Below are positions 24,656-63,084 of a stretch of DNA of 64,000 nucleotides, piece after piece. This DNA comes from Perognathus longimembris pacificus. Lineage: Eukaryota; Chordata; Mammalia; Rodentia; Heteromyidae. The number at the start of each line of letters is the position of its first letter. Within the stretch, counting starts at the first letter, position 1. Both the position numbers and the translations under genes were made by a program. The notes under the pieces are model-generated. The model was not told the origin of the DNA and did not search any database. It worked only from the letters and a program-made list of their open reading frames with translations. The stretch is from contig NC_063171.1 in the NCBI RefSeq assembly GCF_023159225.1, positions 11,980,826-12,044,825 on the forward strand, written 5' to 3'.

Positions 24656-25023
24656 TGAAATTTAAGTTAGATTGTTCAGAATACACTTTCTCCTATTTTG
24701 TGGATAATCCAGCATCCTTCCCATTCATGGAATCCAGAGGATTTATTCAGGCCCCATGTGTTTGTATCTATTCAATTCTCAACTTGCCTTATACTTTCTC
24801 TATCTTATTCTCATATTCTGCCTGCCAAATCTCAGATTCCACAGATACTTAATACTACCCTTTTTATTCTCTCAAAACAAGCAATCAAACAAACCTTCTA
24901 GTTTTTCACAAAAGTCGCCCATGTTTTGGGCTAACCCAATATTTTGGGCTAACATGAACAAGGAGGTTATATGTTGGAATATTACGGAGATCCAAACCAA
25001 AGTTATTCAGGCCTTTGAAATTT
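24656..25023 (+). repeat. Copy A of inverted, circularly permuted duplication (X-Y order)
   Basis: Block X (about 24664-24900) and block Y (24936-25015) are both found again at 28646-28971 on the opposite strand, but in the order Y-X. Copy A is bounded by the direct repeat tgaaattt (24656-24663 and 25016-25023), and this 8-mer occurs once at the Y/X junction of the other copy. The 35 bp 24901-24935 are absent from copy B. No match to the L1 or SINE families of this window. Confidence 0.88.
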
Positions 25024-26689
25024 TTAGGATTGTATTGTTACCATCAACTCAGACCCTGAGTCAATGATTCCTTGAAATGTACCAACTTGCCCACACACTT
25101 CAAATAGCATAGAATCCATATAAATGGCCATAAGTTTATTCAGGTGAACAACTTAATAATTATTAGAATATAGTATGCACTTACATATAAATTCTACTAT
25201 TGATTTTTATTGATTGATTTGTCTATATTCTTGCTGTTTCCCTTAATCTTTGTTTAATGTACTAAAGACACTAGAGGATTTTCTTAACAGTGACAGAAGC
25301 AAAAGAAATGAACTGGACTATTTACCTGAAAGAAATATTGTAAATTCAGTTTCCTCTAGAGTGTCACATGTAGGCCTATTAACCTTCACCTAGTAGGATA
25401 CAAAGAAGAGATAGCAAACCTTTCTCCGATGTTTAAATTTTTCTCAACCTCAAAGACTCTGATCAGGTATGATCTTTCATGAGTATCTCCACTTTCTTCT
25501 TCAAATTAGATTTCGCAGTAAATTTACCCTTAACATTTCAGGACTGGCCCTAGATGATCATGAAGAGTAATTCATGCTCATGAGGAATTGTAATTTATTT
25601 CACTCTATAAGAGTACACATTCATTTGAGAGGCTTACTTCTATCATCTTCCCAATGAGAAAGAAAATAATCAATTATTTTCCAAGACAGGTGAGTTCCTG
25701 ACAGGATGGGGCACATACCTCATAAGAATGAAAAACATGCTTCAGGGAAGGTACCGTTGTTTCTATACATACATTTTGCTCACAATCCCCATTCTTTAGC
25801 TTGGATTCATTCCAAGTCTGGGGTAAGAACATGATTTGTCTAATGCACCACACAATACCAATCTCTTTCCCCTAGTTTGTCCTGAAATTACTTAGCCAAC
25901 AAGGATAGCCTTCTAAATCTACCAAGATCGAGGTGAGCATAAGCTTGTGATCAGATTTTGGCCAAGAACCAGTAAAGACAGGCTTATGCTCACCTAGTAG
26001 GGATTTAGTAGGGATTTCTAGGAAAGAGCTTTCTATCCTTTTGTGAAACACATTTTAGAAGTAAAATTCTTACTTGTCTTTGCACTTTGAAGTTTCAGAT
26101 ATGAAATAAAATAGTTAAATTGCATATTTCCATGTTAAAACAAAACTTTCTACTCATATTAAACATGTATCCTTCATAATCTCTGTTGATGAATTAAATT
26201 AATTAAATATTTTACTCTTTCCCAAATATCGCAAAACTGCTTTTCAGTGATGTTATGTCCAAGACTTAGATCCTTAGATTGTAATAACTGTATTTCATAG
26301 AATATGTGCTCAGAAGCAGAGGATACCTAATCCCTAAATACTACTACTTTTGGAATCTCATCAGTTCTGCAACTCTGTGCTTTCTAAAACCCTAGTTAGT
26401 CCCAGCTCTTCACAGCCTATCTGCCTAAAGAAGTTTACAGTTATTTGATATATAATAAACTGTCTGCTTAGGTTTCTTGATATTGGTGTGTGTTCTTCAA
26501 GATGAAACAGCTATGCATCCATTTTCTTTCTGTGTAGACTATGAATTAAATTAATCTATAAGACTGACACCCATGATTTAAAACTCAGCTACTTGCAGTG
26601 TTATTAAGTGAAAATTCTGGTTCAAAGCAAGCAGGAACAGACAAAGCCTCTCAGCTCTTTCCTCCAAATAATGAACAAAGTATTGAAAG
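25024..26689. other. anonymous sequence
   Basis: No coding or repeat family recognised apart from the inverted repeat at 25931-25995. Confidence 0.45.
25931..25995. repeat. Inverted repeat, 14 bp perfect arms
   Basis: Arms aggtgagcataagc (25931-25944) and gcttatgctcacct (25982-25995) are exact reverse complements around a 37 bp spacer. It can form a hairpin; no function inferred. Confidence 0.85.
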
Positions 26690-26890
26690 TAGAGTGGTGA
26701 TTCACATAGTAGCATGCCAGCTGTGATCAAAACTCCTTGCAAAAGCACAAGACTTACTATCAGCACAAGAAAAAAGAATAACACTAGAAAACTGGGATAT
26801 GGAACAAATATTAGAATATCTGCTTTTCAAGTGGGAAGCCCATTAGTTCAAACTCTAGTGCAGCTCAATAAATAAAATAATAATAACATA
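26690..26890 (+). mobile_element. degenerate SINE-like sequence
   Basis: About 26791-26865 resembles a worn ID-like monomer ('gggatatggaac', 'ttcaaactctagtgc') with an ATAA-rich end. The preceding part may be a worn Geo monomer. Weak. Confidence 0.35.
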
Positions 26891-27253
26891 AAATTAGAGG
26901 AGATGACAGACCATGGAAAGGAGCAACTGGTAGGATTAGAATCATTGTGGCAAATATAGAGCTGAATTTTCACTATTGTGCTAAGAGGATGTATTGCTAT
27001 ATAATGCTGTATTCAAGCAGTGTTTCCATTACCTTAGTGGAAATGTAAGTTAACTCATAAAATAAGTGATACTTAAGCTAGAACCTAAAAGATGTACTTG
27101 AGGGTTAACAATTAAAAACAACTGGAGAGGCCTATACAAGAAGAAAGAGCAACTGGAATAAAAAAAAATTACTTTAAATATTTTAAGTACTCTTATTCAA
27201 GGAAGTTGAAATTACCCTCCATACATTATCTCTACAATAAAAATTAATTTTAA
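26891..27253. other. anonymous sequence
   Basis: Nothing recognised. Confidence 0.4.
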
Positions 27254-27470
27254 GGGCTGGGGATATGGCCTAGTGGCAAGAGTGCCTGCCTCATATACAT
27301 GAGGCCCTGGGTTCGATTCCCCAGCACCACATACACAGAAAATGGCCAGAAGTGGTGCTGTGGCTCAAGTGGCAGAGTGCTAGCCTTGAGCAAAAAGAAG
27401 CCAGGGATAGTGCTCAGGCCCTGAGTCCAAGCCCCAGGACTGGCAAAAAAAAAATAATAATAATTTAAAA
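27254..27470 (+). mobile_element. IDL-Geo SINE
   Basis: Complete dimer. A box 'tggcctagtgg' and B box 'ggttcgattcc' are intact, the Geo half has 'gcaaaaagaa', and the tail is A then (ATA)n to about 27470. An intermediate-age copy; TSD unclear because the flanks are AT-rich. Confidence 0.92.
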
Positions 27471-28645
27471 ACTTCTAGAATCTAATGAAACAAACATGTA
27501 TATATGAAATTAAAACATTTTGAAAATTCAAAATATTGAAGTAAAAATAAGATTAAAGCATTTATAAAATGAAAGTACTATATAGATAAAAAATGAGGTA
27601 TTCTGATACCTTTACATATATTGTAAACATTCATATGTATTTCTGCCTAGATCATGTAATCAAGTATCCTATGCTACATGACTTACTTGAAATTACTTTT
27701 TCTAGCCATGGGTATGGGTTTTATGATATTCTCATCTCTCTCTGTCTCTTTATATAACTGTACATAATATAATTCTTATATGATATACAATTATATATTA
27801 TATTATTCACAATATTCTACTATATCATATTATATAGTATTTCAATATATTATAGAGTATATAATACAATATCAAATAATGTACAGTATAATATAACAAT
27901 ATATGGTCATTTTATAAGTAACATTTTATGTGATACTATAAAATATTATAATACATTACATATATTTATATATGTACATACACATACAGAGAGAAAGACA
28001 GAGAGGGAGAGGGAGAGGGGGGAAGGCAGGCCATACCTGCCTTCAGCCAGCAAAGATGCTCCTTCTCCTATGATACTCAGGTACCCTCAAGCAGCCAGCA
28101 TCTTAAATATTGCTAGGTTCCCAAAGAGAAGAGATGGTCTCAAGCTGAAGTTGCTCAGGAAATATTTTCATCTCAGTCACAGTGTTCAGAATCGTCATAG
28201 TGTTTTTTGTAATTTCAAAGGGTCCTTGGGACACAAGCCTTTTCTGTGTGCAGATGGAATGAGAATATGAACCATTTCAGAGAAAGCAACAATCACTGCT
28301 TTTTAATGAGTACCAATAGTTTAAGTGAGAAAATAAATGATCAATGGCTCCTTTCTACTTAAAAGACTGAGGTTGAGGACTGTCATAGATACATGTTTTA
28401 TAGTGAATATTTATACAGAGATATGCCAAGAGTTGACAGCAAAGCACTCCTCTCAATTATTTCACCTGATGAAGTCAGGGAAATGCAAATGTAAAGGAGA
28501 AGATGCTGAGCTTCTTCTGTAAGATGAAGTGACCTTTGTGTAGGTACCCCTAATGTTTACACATATCAGTGCTGCTAGGAATGTATCCCAATGCAAACCT
28601 GAACGTGTATGAAGGCAGATATAATAATAAGATTTAATTTATGTA
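27471..28645. other. anonymous sequence with AT-rich and GA-rich tracts
   Basis: About 27755-27975 is almost pure A/T with repeated 'atat' and 'ataatata' units. About 27990-28024 is a purine tract of GAGAGG units. It is followed by a small perfect hairpin, gaaggcagg/cctgccttc, at about 28022-28044. No gene recognised. Confidence 0.5.
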
Positions 28646-28971
28646 TAGAAGGTTTGTTTGCTTGCTTGATTTTAGAGAGTAAAAAATGGTAGTATTAAGT
28701 ATTTGTGGGCTCCGGAATTTGGCAGGCAGAATATGAGAATAAGAAAGAGAAATTATAAGGCAAGTTGAGAATTGAATAGATACAAACACATGGAGCCTTA
28801 GTACATCCTGGGGATTCTGTGAATGGGAAGGAGTCAGGATTATCCACAAAACAGGAAAATGTGTATTCTGAATAATTCAACTTAAATTTCAAAAGCCTGA
28901 AGAACTTTGGCTGGGATCTCCATAATATTCCAACATATAATCTCCTTGTTCATGTTAGCCCAAAATATTGG
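28646..28971 (-). repeat. Copy B of inverted, circularly permuted duplication (Y-X order)
   Basis: Reverse complement of the 24656-25023 sequence with block order swapped. Read on the minus strand, Y (28971-28892) is joined directly to X (28883-28646) through one copy of tgaaattt (28891-28884). By eye the copies agree at roughly 85-90% of bases. Length 326 bp matches 368 - 35 - 8 = 325 expected for a permuted circle opened with loss of 24901-24935. Confidence 0.88.
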
Positions 28972-46641: not shown

Positions 46642-48006
46642 GTTTTGGAGGAGTGTAATTTTTTTAGTTCTGCATATATTTTAGATACGAGGCTTTGGCC
46701 ATTGTACGGCCGGTAAAGATCTTTGACCAATCTGTGGGCCTTCTGTTTATCTTGCGAGCTATGTCCTTTGCCCTGCAGAGGCTCTGCAGTTTGATGCAGT
46801 CCCATTTGTCCAACCTTTCTTTGATTTGTAGCATTTCTGGGTCTTCGTTAAGGAAGTTCCATCCTGTGCCAAGGAGCCCAAGTGTTTCTCCTGCTCTTTC
46901 CTTTAGTGTTTTCAGGGTATCTCTTTTAATTTCGAGGTCTTTGGTCCTTTTGAAATTGATTTTGGTGCAGGGTGATATATAAGGAACTAGTTTTAGTTTG
47001 TTGCATGTGTTGAACCAGTTTTGCCAGCACCATTTGTTAAAGAGGCTATCTTTCTTTTAGACTATCTTTTAACTCCTTCATCAAAGATTAAGTAGGCATA
47101 GTTTTGTAGGTTCATTTCTGGGTCTTTAATTCTGTTCCATTGGTCTTCAGGCCTGTTCTGGTGCCAATACAAAGCTGTTTTTATTAATATAGCTTTATAA
47201 TACAGTTTAAAGTTTGGTATTTTTATTCCTCCAGCACTGTTCTTTCTGCTTAGGATTGTTTTTGCTATTCTGGCTCTTTTATTGTTCCATATGAATTTCT
47301 GGATTGCTTCCTCTATTTCATTAAAAAATGGTGTTGGGATCGTCCCCTCAATAAGTGGGCTAAAGACTTAAAAAGAGACTTCTCTGATGAGGAAATGAGA
47401 ATGGCCAAGAGACATATGAAAAAGTGCTCTACATCACTGGCCATAAAAGAGATGCAAATCAAAACAACATTGATGTTCCACCTCACCCCACTAATCATGT
47501 CCTATATCAAGAAAACTAACAATAACAAATGTTGGAGGGGATGTGGCCAAAATGGAACCCTATTTCATTGTTAGTGGGAGTATAAACTGGTTCAGCCACT
47601 CTAGAGAGCAGTATGGAGATTCCTCAAAAGGCTAAATATAGAACTCCCCTATGACCCAGCAGCCCCACTTTGGGCATCTACCCAAAAGACCACAAACAAG
47701 AACACACTAAAGCCACCAGCACAACAATGTTTATCGCAGCACAATTTGTCATAGCTAGAATATGGAACCAACCCAGATGCCCCTCAGTAGATGAATGGAT
47801 CAGGGAAATGTGGTACATATACACAATGGAATTTTATGCCTCTATCAGAAAGAATGACATTGCTTCTTTCGTAAGGAAATGGAAGGACTTGGAAAAAATT
47901 ACACTAAGTGATGTGAGCCAGACCCAAAGAAACATGGACTCTATGGTCTCCCTCATAGGGAATAGTTAGCACAGGTATAGGCAAATCACAGCAGAGGATC
48001 ACAAGA
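46642..48006 (+). mobile_element. L1 with inverted 5' part (twin priming), 3' end lost
   Basis: Bases 46642-47341 are ORF2 sequence in minus orientation, ending upstream in the element at 'ggtgttgggat'. From 47342 the sequence is plus and starts at the ORF2 point about 25 bases after where the inverted part stops. It runs through the C-terminal coding region (open piece 47670-47969, ending SLIGNS, stop at 47967-47969) to 'gatcacaag' at about 48006, where L1 sequence stops with no 3'UTR end or tail. Confidence 0.88.
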
Positions 48007-48115
48007 AAAAATGAACCTTTCTTTTATTAAAAGTGTTAAGTCTATATTTCAGCAGTTTTTGCTTATTCACATATTTAAATTAAAAATGAGCTACATGATT
48101 CTACCTTTGATATTG
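48005..48115 (+). repeat. Copy of local sequence inserted in L1
   Basis: 111 bp of non-L1 sequence equal to 50196-50306 at about 95% of bases by eye, placed between two L1 pieces. Starts 'gaaaaaatgaacctttc' and ends 'cctttgatattg'. Confidence 0.9.
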
Positions 48116-48381
48116 AGCCAGACCCAAAGAAACATGGACTCTATTGTCTCCCTCATAGGGAATAATTAGAACAGGTTTAGGCTAGTCACAGCAGAGGATC
48201 ACAAGAGCCCAATAGCTATACCCTTATGAATACCTACGATGATGCTAAGTGAAATGAACTCCATGTTACGGAAATGATTGTTATATCACTGTTTTAACTA
48301 CTCTCAACGTGCTATGTGTAATCGTAGCTTCTATTATTGATGAACTTCTTGTATCCCCTTCCTATGGTGTAACTGCACTGT
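48116..48381 (+). mobile_element. L1 fragment repeating the preceding L1 end
   Basis: Begins 'gccagacccaaagaaacatgg', repeating the last ~75 bp of the L1 piece before the insert with about six differences, then goes on into the 3'UTR and stops at 'taactgcactgt' without the G-rich tract, 3' terminus or A-tail. Confidence 0.85.
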
Positions 48382-50195: not shown

Positions 50196-50306
50196 GAAAA
50201 AAATGAACCTTTCTTTTATTAAAAGTGTTGTCTATTTTTTCAGCAGTTTTTGCTTATTCACATATTTAAATTAAAAATGAACTACATGATTCTACCTTTG
50301 ATATTG
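50196..50306 (+). repeat. Likely source copy of the insert at 48005-48115
   Basis: Same 111 bp sequence embedded in anonymous DNA with no L1 at either edge, so probably the original copy. Orientation is the same; the distance is 2.2 kb. Confidence 0.85.
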
Positions 50307-57408: not shown

Positions 57409-59381
57409 CTTTCTTGTGTTCCTTCTGCCCATTTGGATGGGGAAGGCCAGTCTACCAGCACCTGTGAACACCGTTTAAGACCCAAAGGAGACCTTAGCAG
57501 GTATTGTTGTGTAAATCTTAAAATTTCACAATTAAATACACATACCTGTGTATAAAATTAGATTTGGTGTTCCTAAAGAATACAATTTCATTTTAACAAC
57601 CAATCCTGAGCCCTGTATTCAGTAGTTACTTATTTACGGTTACAATTGAGCAATTCTTGTTCTTATATTAAGTTCCTTTTGGACTGGCTTTCTCTATGAA
57701 CCCCTTTGTTTCACTTGATTTAAGTGGGGATACCCTCTATCCAATAACCAGGCATCAATGGGATCTGGAGGACCTAGTAGTAAGTCAGGAGGTTAAGTTA
57801 GAGGTAATAAAGAAACTAGAGTAAAATGTATGGAGGGGTGATGATTTTGGTTTAGTTTCAGTGACGTGGAAATGTGGAGGAGAGTAGAATCAGTAGAAAC
57901 AACAAGGTTAAAATGATAAACAGTGGAGAGTTAGAAGTAAAGAGTGGAGATATTATTCATAGGAAAGTAATTTTTAAAGAAATAGAATACATAGAGAGAA
58001 TACTGGAAGACAGATGCACATAACCGAGAAAAGTTATTTAAAAAAAAATGAAATAGAAAGGAAAAACAGAAAAAACCAGAAAAATGAAAAAGAAAAAAAA
58101 AATGATCAACTACAACAACAACAAAAAAAACAACAACAACAAAAAAGTTAGAACCAACAGGTGAAAATGGGAAACAAAAACAAACCAATGATGTTTCAGA
58201 AATGAAAATATAAAAAAAAAAAATGAAAGCTTGAAAATCTTTTGAGACAAAAACCAAAGTCTTCCTTGTTTGGATGGACTTTCTACAGTCTCTGGTTTCC
58301 TTGTGATGGTCTTCAGTCTATTCTGCCACTTGGCTGGTTTGACGTGCCTTCAGTTTGCAGGGGTGGATCTGTTCTGACCCTCCTTCCCTGTTGGTGCAAT
58401 CGTGGGTCTCTGTGGTTCCCACAGCTTGCAGGTAAGAGTTGGGTGTGCTCTGTAGGTGGGGACTTGAGCAGTCTCAGGAGCCATGGCTCCTCCTGTCTGC
58501 TGTGGGGCTGCTGCCTTTAACACCTAGCTTTCAATAGGCTAGCTTTTCAATAGGACTCAGCAGGGTGGGGCAACTCTGGCTTGGTTTACCAGGCTGAGTC
58601 CCTTGCCTTGGGGAAGTTCCACCCTCCTGGGAGGGGTGGCCTTCTAGGCAGGGCTGGGTATGGAATTCAGCTCTGTTTCAGGCTGGGAATTAGGCATCTT
58701 AATGGGACCGTTTATCTGTCTCAGGAAGTTTGTTCTCCCGTTTGGCAGTTCCGTGCAGCCGATAGCTGCTTGCCGCTTTCGCTTTTTAATTTAGGAATTC
58801 CGGTGAGCAGGGCGGGCACCTCTAGCCGGGCTGAGGCCCAGGACATGCCTCCCACCTGGGCAGGGGGCGTTCTCATGGGTGGAGCTGGCTCTCACTAATT
58901 GGTCCCTCTTGCCCTTCTCAAAGATGGCCACTTTGTCCTCGCTTTCCCCAGGTGGGCTTTAGCTCCAGTCTGGTCTGACGCTTTGCCAGTGTCAAAAATG
59001 GCGCTTTGCTCTCATGGTTGGGGGACGAGCTGCTCTTTGGGAGTGAATGAGACTGTCTTTTGTGGGAGTACTGAGACTGTCTCTAAGACTTCAGCCTATC
59101 CTTGCTGTGATCTGTATGTACGTTGCCATCTGGAGGATTTCTCCCTGGTCCCCACTGAGCTGTGCGGGTGTGCAGCGCCATGCCGGCACCAGCAGTGGAG
59201 TAGCGTCAGACCATTTAAGTTGATTTTTCCTTCCTGGCTGGAATCCCTATACTGTTAGAACTTATTTGAGCTGTCTATCTAGCAGTAAAAGTTTCTCTGG
59301 GGTGGGAAAACTGCTCTGTTGGAGGGAGCTCAGCTAGGGCACTGTTGCTCTTCTGCCATCTTCTCCCAATCTTGCCTGAGC
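57409..59381 (-). promoter_or_regulatory. L1 5'UTR with internal promoter region
   Basis: About 2 kb upstream of ORF1. The 5' ~1.1 kb (58250-59381) is GC-richer than its surroundings. The 3' part (about 57900-58245) is A/T homopolymer-rich, with (CAA)n near 58115-58145 on plus. An aagatggc motif (sense; 59355-59362) lies about 20 bases from the 5' end, the place where human L1 has its YY1 site. That similarity is by position and core sequence only. Confidence 0.75.
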
Positions 59382-61724: not shown

Positions 61725-63084
61725 TGGGAAGACGGCGGAGGAGAAGCAGAGCCCTAGCTGAGCTCCCTCCGACATCGCAGTTTTTTCACCCCATAGAAAC
61801 TTTTACTCCTAGAAAGACAGCCAAAGTAAGTTCTAACAGTACAGGGATTCTGGCCAGGAAGGAAAAATCGGCTTTGCTGGTCTGAAAACACAGATTTGAG
61901 CTCCAGGCGGCGTCCTGCCCCCGCGCCAGTGCCAGCGCCGGCACAGCTCCCGGCAGAACAACTGCACTCCACGCGGCTAAAGCACACAGCGTATACCAGC
62001 GAGAAATCCTCCAGACAGCGGCTGAGCACGGATGACCTGAAATCACAGAGAAAGCGTGAGTACCCCACGAAAGATAATTCTCACTCGCGCCCACAGAGCA
62101 GCTTCCAGAAGGCAGCCCTTCCCCCACCGCCAGAGCAAAGCGCCATATTTGCCACTGGCATAGGGTCAGACCAGATAGGAACTGAAGCGGGCCTGGGGAA
62201 AGCGAGGTCAAAGTAGCCATCTTTGAAAAGGGCAGGAGGGACCCAACAGTGAGAGCCAACTCCACCCAGGAGAACGCCCCCTGCCCTGGCAGAAGGTGAG
62301 TCCTGGGCAGGGGCTTATCCAGAGGTTCCCCGTCCTGCCCGCCGGATGTTCTAAATTTAAAGCAAAAGTTGCGAGCAGCTACCGGCGGCACGGAAACACC
62401 AGACAGCGGAGGAACAAACAGTTCCTGGGACAGATAAACGGTGCCATCACAGAGGAAGCCCAATTCCCAGCCCAAAACGGAGCTGCATTCCATAGCCACC
62501 TCTGCCAAGGAGGCTGCCTCACCCAGGCAAGCAAATCTCAGCCGAGCAAAACAGGCCAGAGGCGCCCCGCCCTGCTGAGTCCACAGCCTATTCAAATCCA
62601 GGCATCAAAGGCAGCAGCCCCACAGTAGACAGAGGAGCCACAGTTCCTGAGACTGCTCACGTCCCCATCTACAGAGGACGCCAAGGCCCACCTGCAAGCT
62701 GTGTGAACCTCAGAGACCCAGGATTGCACCAACAGGGGAGAAGGGTCAGAACAGACCACCCCTTGCATACTGAAATCAAGTCAAACCAGCCAATCAGAAA
62801 AATAGACTGAAGACTATTGCAAGGAAACCAGAGACTGGGGAAAGACCACCCAAACAAGGAGGACTCCATTTTTTTTTCTTTTCAAACATTTTTTAAACTT
62901 TTTAAAAAAATTTTTTCTTTTTAATTTTTTCACATCTGAAACATCGTTGGTTGTTTTTTATTTGTTTGTTTGTTTTCCATTTTTACCGGTTTTATCAAGT
63001 TTTTTGTTTGTTTGTTTGTTTGGGTTGTTCCTTCTCTGTTTTTTTTTTCTTTTTTATTTATTTTTTCTTCTTTTTTAAATAACT
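61725..63084 (+). mobile_element. Orphan L1 5'UTR (no ORFs, no 3' end)
   Basis: Aligns with the first ~1350 bp of the full-length L1 read from 59381 downward: a shared 'ccctagctgagctccctcc' block at 61752-61770, matching the minus-strand copy, then the GC-rich and homopolymer-rich parts in order. Similarity ends abruptly at about 63084 ('ttaaataact'); no ORF1, ORF2 or 3'UTR follows. The 61730-62660 part is rich in CpG compared with the rest of the window. It contains a 269-codon antisense frame (61786-62595, minus), discussed in findings. Confidence 0.85.

What the first reader, a model, noticed from the sequence alone, without database searches (positions are those of the whole stretch)
24656..28971. 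Inverted duplication with circularly permuted block order: footprint of a circular DNA intermediate
Seen directly: 24656-25023 holds blocks X then Y, bounded at both ends by tgaaattt. On the opposite strand, 28646-28971 holds Y then X joined through a single tgaaattt. Bases 24901-24935, between X and Y in the first copy, are missing from the second. The lengths agree (368 - 35 - 8 = 325; observed 326). Inference: recombination between the two 8-mers released a small circle, which opened between X and Y with loss of 35 bp and inserted in inverted orientation about 3.6 kb away. Reinsertion through circles is known for large segments (the cattle KIT colour-sidedness translocations); a ~330 bp case with both junctions readable is unusual. 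The direction could be reversed, with copy B ancestral. Divergence of about 10-15% makes it old.
Basis: partly seen in the sequence, partly recalled or inferred. Interest (0 to 1): 0.8.

Follow-up and report, generated by a model that had tools for sequence, protein, structure and literature searches.

The report
Order-swapped local copy of short DNA
Two diverged copies of a 0.3-kb stretch of rodent DNA lie 3.6 kb apart with their two halves in swapped order, most likely a scar of a broken chromosome being patched from nearby DNA; a small DNA circle is possible but not required.

Summary
X (24656-24900) and Y (24936-25023) recur on the other strand as Y-X (28646-28971), at 87.4% and 93.2% identity, with TGAAATTT at both ends of copy A and once, between Y and X, in copy B. 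Searches of the whole 2.21-Gb genome find only these two places; the flanks match only themselves, while an L1 control gives 3280 candidates. But the circle is not compelled. Both ends of a break inside TGAAATTT could prime on B's TGAAATTT, copy outward through X and Y, and be joined by filler: this gives copy A. Half of the '35 lost bases' is a near-copy of the start of Y (P 0.0012), which looks like templated filler in A, so B is probably the donor. Size, distance, microhomology and filler lie within the ranges of repair-mediated duplications (Pace et al. 2009, PMC2671141). Two more short local two-copy duplications lie within the surrounding 264 kb. A circle remains a live rival. No related genome was available, so direction and mechanism stay inferred.

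The parts
24656..24663 (+). TGAAATTT, left copy of the 8-mer bounding copy A
24656..24900 (+). block X of copy A (87.4% to 28646-28891 on the minus strand)
24901..24917 (+). first part of the X-Y spacer of A, unique; no significant local template (P 0.09 for its best match between A and B)
24918..24934 (+). second part of the spacer: near-copy (16 of 18 columns) of the adjoining 24935-24952 at the start of Y, read as templated filler
   Evidence: alignment; P 0.0012
24936..25023 (+). block Y of copy A (93.2% to 28884-28971 on the minus strand)
25016..25023 (+). TGAAATTT, right copy of the 8-mer bounding copy A
28646..28971 (-). copy B, order Y then X when read on the minus strand; probable donor
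28884..28891 (-). single TGAAATTT at the Y/X junction of copy B; proposed priming site

Best explanation
This is a local repair-mediated duplication whose inserted copy is self-chimeric. Most likely copy B (28646-28971) is the donor and copy A the acceptor. A double-strand break opened at a TGAAATTT where A now lies, with both ends keeping that 8-mer. Both 3' ends paired with the single TGAAATTT of B, about 3.9 kb away, and copied outward in opposite directions: one through X, the other through Y. The two new ends were then joined with about 35 bp of filler, half of it a second copy of the start of Y. This yields TGAAATTT-X-filler-Y-TGAAATTT in inverted orientation, with no circle. Shown: the two copies, their order, the 8-mers, the near-tandem spacer, two copies in the genome at the sensitivity of the search. 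Inferred: direction, break, outward copying, joining.
For: Only two places in 2.21 Gb carry the unit, and the two flanking queries (1521 and 1661 bp) find only themselves plus the pair; the same search gives 3280 candidates (40 scored) for an L1 piece. Distance 3.6 kb and size 326-368 bp lie within the described class: 824 of 1136 human insertions had the donor within 5 kb, proximal ones up to 619 bp; at examined breakpoints microhomology was 2-9 nt, filler 1-68 nt, target duplications 4-21 nt; 20 acceptors were chimeras of two donors (PMC2671141 sections 6 and 7). The two outward arms (246 + 88) plus 35 bp give 369 against 368 observed, the difference being the one-base gap in X. A near-tandem as strong as the one at the joint occurs at a random place with P 0.0012. 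The 8-mer occurs 39 times in 264 kb, so a match within a few kb of a break is ordinary. Two other short local duplications in that 264 kb also have exactly two matches genome-wide.
Against: No orthologous empty site was seen; no related genome is held. In PMC2671141, 753 of the 824 proximal donors were under 3 kb away, so 3.6 kb is in the thin tail, and the combination needed here (microhomology + target duplication + filler) was seen in only 2 of 39 proximal cases. RD density was lower in mouse (0.26 per Mb of transposon DNA) than in human (0.62). The first 17 bp of the spacer have no convincing template (P 0.09). The near-tandem boundary was chosen after seeing it, and it could be an older feature of A with B's end falling at a hairpin-prone spot (fold z -2.27, 8 of 200 shuffles as good). 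Outward copying by both ends from one shared 8-mer is not described in the passages I read.
Confidence: 0.5

Rival explanations
1. A small circle: a segment of one copy was joined end to end, opened at another point and inserted, inverted, 3.6 kb away.
For: Swapped order with both blocks in the same relative orientation is the published signature (PMC7450558, PMC7188851). The two block ends lie next to each other in A, which a circle explains without coincidence. No leftover X or Y was found beside either copy, the check used against false positives in PMC7188851. If A is the donor the circle is 360 bp, near one of the two main sizes (about 180 and 360 bp) of germline eccDNA in PMC10581685, where microhomology-mediated joining is named the major route. 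Published circle-type pairs are mostly on one chromosome (12 of 16 in Table 1 of PMC7450558), so some locality is not foreign to them.
Against: Insertion 3.6 kb from the source is far closer than the cases in the two papers read (0.09 Mb and more) and has no reason in a freely diffusing circle (inference). Most sperm-circle microhomologies are under 5 bp, and the resolved closing joints of the human pairs had 0-2 bp or a 1-nt insertion, against 8 bp here. If B is the donor the 360-bp match disappears.
Confidence: 0.25
2. Copy A is the donor; one break end at B copied Y, slipped back from one TGAAATTT to the other and copied X (serial template switching), or both ends copied outward from the spacer and annealed at the 8-mer.
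For: Same product and same junction; an 8-bp joint lies within the 2-9 nt seen at repair duplications.
Against: For the single-ended form the stop point lying 35 bp from the start point is a coincidence, and the near-tandem beside the breakpoint is unexplained.
Confidence: 0.13
3. A tandem X-Y-X-Y existed first; Y-X was copied across its junction to B and the tandem later contracted.
For: A tandem duplication with later partial deletion is the typical false positive for the circle signature in PMC7188851.
Against: Needs three events; no remnant of a second unit was found beside A or B; Tandem Repeats Finder lists no array between 24163 and 36176.
Confidence: 0.08
4. Two members of a dispersed or satellite repeat family cut in different phase.
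For: Permuted ends are usual for tandem-derived repeats (general knowledge).
Against: Two candidates only in each of four genome searches, against 3280 for an L1 control.
Confidence: 0.02

Closest known systems
Repair-mediated duplications (RDs) by capture of proximal DNA, Pace et al. 2009, PMC2671141
   Same: Two genome copies, under 5 kb apart, a few hundred bp, with microhomology, filler or short target duplication at the joints; chimeric acceptors are known.
   Different: Here both patches come from one donor and are in swapped order; the published chimeras join different donors. No transposable element was recognised as host of the acceptor, and the empty site was not seen.
eccDNA-mediated duplications, Takahashi and Innan 2020 (PMC7188851), and circular-DNA segmental duplication pairs, Chicote et al. 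2020 (PMC7450558)
   Same: Swapped block order, same orientation within the copy; in PMC7450558 only short changes at the resolved breakpoints.
   Different: Published cases are about 20 kb to 3.9 Mb long and at least 0.09 Mb apart or on other chromosomes; this is 0.36 kb and 3.6 kb. PMC7188851 suggests undetected cases under 500 bp.
Cattle KIT colour-sidedness translocations (Durkin et al. 2012; cited in the two papers above, not read)
   Same: Permuted order explained by a circular intermediate.
   Different: Large segments moved between loci (recalled).
Doublets, Thomas et al. 2004 (known here only through PMC2671141 section 14)
   Same: Short, local duplications.
   Different: The passage describes such surveys as limited to identical or nearly identical duplicons under 100 bp; no order swap is mentioned there.

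Membership tests
Repair-mediated duplication (RD) | Insert found at only one other place in the genome | tested here: met
   (the search may miss strongly diverged copies); control
Repair-mediated duplication (RD) | Donor and acceptor within 5 kb on one chromosome | tested here: met
   3622 bp between the copies; most published proximal cases are under 3 kb (753 of 824)
Repair-mediated duplication (RD) | Length at least 50 bp, proximal ones up to 619 bp | tested here: met
   326 and 368 bp
Repair-mediated duplication (RD) | Microhomology, filler, deletion or target duplication at breakpoints | tested here: inconclusive
   the 8-mer and the 35-bp spacer are there, but without an empty site their roles depend on the direction assumed
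Repair-mediated duplication (RD) | No added poly-A/T tract of 5 bp or more at one end | tested here: inconclusive
   none at the ends of B; at A's right end the 8-mer runs into TT, making T5 across the boundary
Repair-mediated duplication (RD) | Empty site in a relative or in the host transposon's consensus | not testable with these tools
   the genome has no relatives held; flanks of A and B match nothing else in it
eccDNA-mediated duplication | Block order swapped, orientation kept | tested here: met
eccDNA-mediated duplication | No extra flanking copy of a block (tandem false positive) | tested here: met
eccDNA-mediated duplication | A circular molecule as intermediate | not testable with these tools
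   the end product is the same as for outward linear copying
Sperm-type small eccDNA as source | About 180 or 360 bp with end microhomology | tested here: inconclusive
   360 bp with 8 bp if A is the donor; does not apply if B is
Sperm-type small eccDNA as source | GC above surroundings (a tendency of the class) | tested here: inconclusive
   A 0.356 (its 360 bp 0.361) against 0.347 and 0.357 in the 1 kb on either side: practically equal
Satellite or dispersed repeat | Many copies or tandem arrays | tested here: not met

The most novel reading that the evidence does not exclude
A fossil of a small germline circle: a 360-bp, two-nucleosome-sized segment closed through an 8-bp microhomology, as sperm eccDNAs often are, and put back 3.6 kb away in inverted orientation. 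It would belong to the sub-500-bp class of eccDNA duplication that PMC7188851 suggests but could not detect, and would show that such circles feed the germline genome.
Probability: 0.15. Interest if true: 0.6.

Novelty: new variant of a known kind. Interest (0 to 1): 0.33.

Why it matters
Permuted local copies read at base resolution could tell linear break repair from circular intermediates: the two predict different distributions of the gap or overlap between the outer ends. Cases this small were outside the two published scans that I read (500-bp floor in PMC7188851; 22 kb and more in PMC7450558), so a genome-wide count in mammals would make the question testable. This single case cannot decide it.

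Tried and rejected
Repeat family or satellite: rejected at the sensitivity of the search. Extension of homology into the flanks, which would point to a longer array: 9 comparisons, lowest P 0.09; 7 anchored ones, lowest P 0.03, left as no evidence. Template for the first part of the spacer: an 11-mer match at 26038, P 0.09, rejected. Rfam: 0 matches at gathering scores. Pfam on 6 window ORFs chosen from the 27: reverse transcriptase or endonuclease in 3 of 6 (one of them below its curated cut-off), nothing in the other 3; none of the 6 lies in A or B. Plasmid collection: no match. A copy made from a circular RNA was considered by eye only: no splice-like borders or tails seen; no tool test.

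Census limits: 264 kb only. One search listed 6 local low-copy HSPs under 20 kb apart, that is 5 pairs. One search, with E below 1, distance under 6 kb and depth at most 2, kept 4 HSPs, that is 3 pairs, 1 of 3 permuted; reg 138253/142534 fell to the depth filter and reg 168879/177981 to the distance filter. A reversed-sequence decoy gave 3 local HSPs at the same E limit, whose scores I did not print, so the limit itself is weak; the 3 pairs stand on their scores (132-301 bits) and. The three 'PERM' rows at reg 211606-211649 are overlapping short hits and were disregarded.

Full report
What is there. Copy A (24656-25023) holds block X, a 35-bp spacer and block Y; copy B (28646-28971) on the opposite strand holds Y then X. 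X aligns over 246 columns with 215 identities and one gap, Y over 88 columns with 82 identities. The copies are 3622 bp apart. TGAAATTT stands at both ends of A and once at the Y/X joint of B. There are 36 differences in 333 sites, K2P 0.117. The pair is therefore old, but I give no date: no rate was measured here.

Is it a repeat? Not at the sensitivity available. The genome in which the window lies (2.21 Gb, window at C11:11980826-12044825) was searched with A, with B, and with each plus its flanks. Each search had two candidates, the query itself and its partner. The tool warns that very common words are skipped and that counts are lower bounds. As a control an L1 piece from the same window gave 3280 candidates, 40 of them scored, and the searches did find a partner at 87% identity, so a family of similar copies should have shown.

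The spacer. A similarity that strong between neighbouring stretches occurs at random places in the window with P 0.0012 (the boundary was chosen after seeing it; one search lists 6 places in 64 kb with a comparable near-tandem, this one included). Copies of neighbouring sequence at a joint are typical of filler made in end joining (general knowledge; filler of 1-68 nt is reported at repair duplications). This suggests that A gained the spacer, so that A is the acceptor and B the donor. The lean is moderate: the spot can also form hairpins (z -2.27, 8 of 200 shuffles as good), and a pre-existing near-tandem at a fragile site is possible.

Mechanism. With B as donor the geometry is simple. A break inside a TGAAATTT at A leaves the 8-mer on both ends. 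Each 3' end pairs with the one TGAAATTT of B. The left end copies X, the right end copies Y, away from each other. Joining the two ends with 35 bp of filler gives A: 246 + 88 + 35 = 369 against 368 observed, the difference being the one-base gap in X. The shared 8-mer explains why both blocks begin at one point in B and why the 8-mer bounds A. In 264 kb the 8-mer occurs 39 times on both strands, so a partner within a few kb of a break is to be expected. No circle is needed. With A as donor, the same product arises by copying outward from the spacer and annealing at the 8-mer, or by a backward slip.

Known class. Pace and co-workers (PMC2671141; abstract, sections 6, 7, 12, 14 and passages read) found 1136 human insertions with one other genomic copy. 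In 824 the donor was within 5 kb, in 753 within 3 kb; proximal ones had a mean of 162 bp and a maximum of 619 bp. At the breakpoints examined there was microhomology of 2-9 nt, filler of 1-68 nt and target duplications of 4-21 nt, and 20 acceptors were chimeras of two donors. They attribute these to synthesis-dependent strand annealing, in which both ends may copy separately. The present pair fits size, distance and copy number, though its distance lies in the thin tail and the combination of microhomology, target duplication and filler was seen in only 2 of 39 proximal cases. It differs in that both patches come from one donor in swapped order.

Neighbourhood. In the surrounding 264 kb three local low-copy pairs passed the filters: this one, window 48006-48115 with 50198-50306 (95%), and C11:11955418-11955568 with 11956444-11956594 inverted (92%). 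Each has exactly two places in the genome by the search. The second sits in an L1 and is flanked by a duplication of 93 bp, 87 of 93 identical. Short local copies are thus not rare here, and one of three is permuted. The published density in mouse, 0.26 per Mb of transposon DNA, was obtained by a different method and cannot be compared directly.

The circle. Swapped order is the published mark of duplication through circles in human (PMC7450558, outline, sections 4 and 9 read; PMC7188851, whole text read) and, as those papers cite, in cattle. The human cases are about 20 kb and more. PMC7188851 notes that its 500-bp floor probably hid smaller ones. If A is the donor, the circle would be 360 bp, near one of the two main sizes of germline eccDNA, for which microhomology-mediated joining is named the major route; more than a third had homology of 1 bp or more, mostly under 5 bp (PMC10581685, passages and section 10 read). 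Against it: the distance of 3.6 kb has no reason in a free circle, 8 bp is long for such joints, and the size match vanishes if B is the donor. Softening the first point, 12 of the 16 human pairs are on one chromosome, though none nearer than 0.09 Mb. The adjacency of the outer ends, which a circle explains, is equally explained by outward copying from one point. I therefore keep the circle at about one in four.

Verdict. It is a new variant of a known kind of local repair duplication. I noticed no report of such a self-chimeric swapped case in the listings of nine paper searches (one search was about rodent genomes), which cover only an open-licence library and of which I opened five papers (PMC7450558, PMC7188851, PMC11879418 passages only, PMC10581685, PMC2671141).

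Noticed in passing
window 47914-48206 and 50198-50306: A 110-bp copy of 50198-50306 sits inside an L1 at 48006-48115 and is flanked by a 93-bp duplication of the L1 (87 of 93 identical); the genome search gives only these two places.
   Followed up: partly
L011:4593-4743 and L011:5619-5769 (C11:11955418-11956594): A 151-bp inverted local duplication, 92% identical, under 1 kb apart, with exactly two matches in the genome.
   Followed up: partly
window 24895-24965: Two neighbouring small hairpins and a 17/18-bp near-tandem at the X-Y spacer.
   Followed up: yes
window 58063-59363 and 61728-63076: A 1.4-kb inverted pair at 72% identity, nature not examined.
   Followed up: no
window 27254-27471 and about ten other places in the window: A repeat of about 215 bp that looks like a SINE (by eye); many copies in the window, family not tested.
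   Followed up: no
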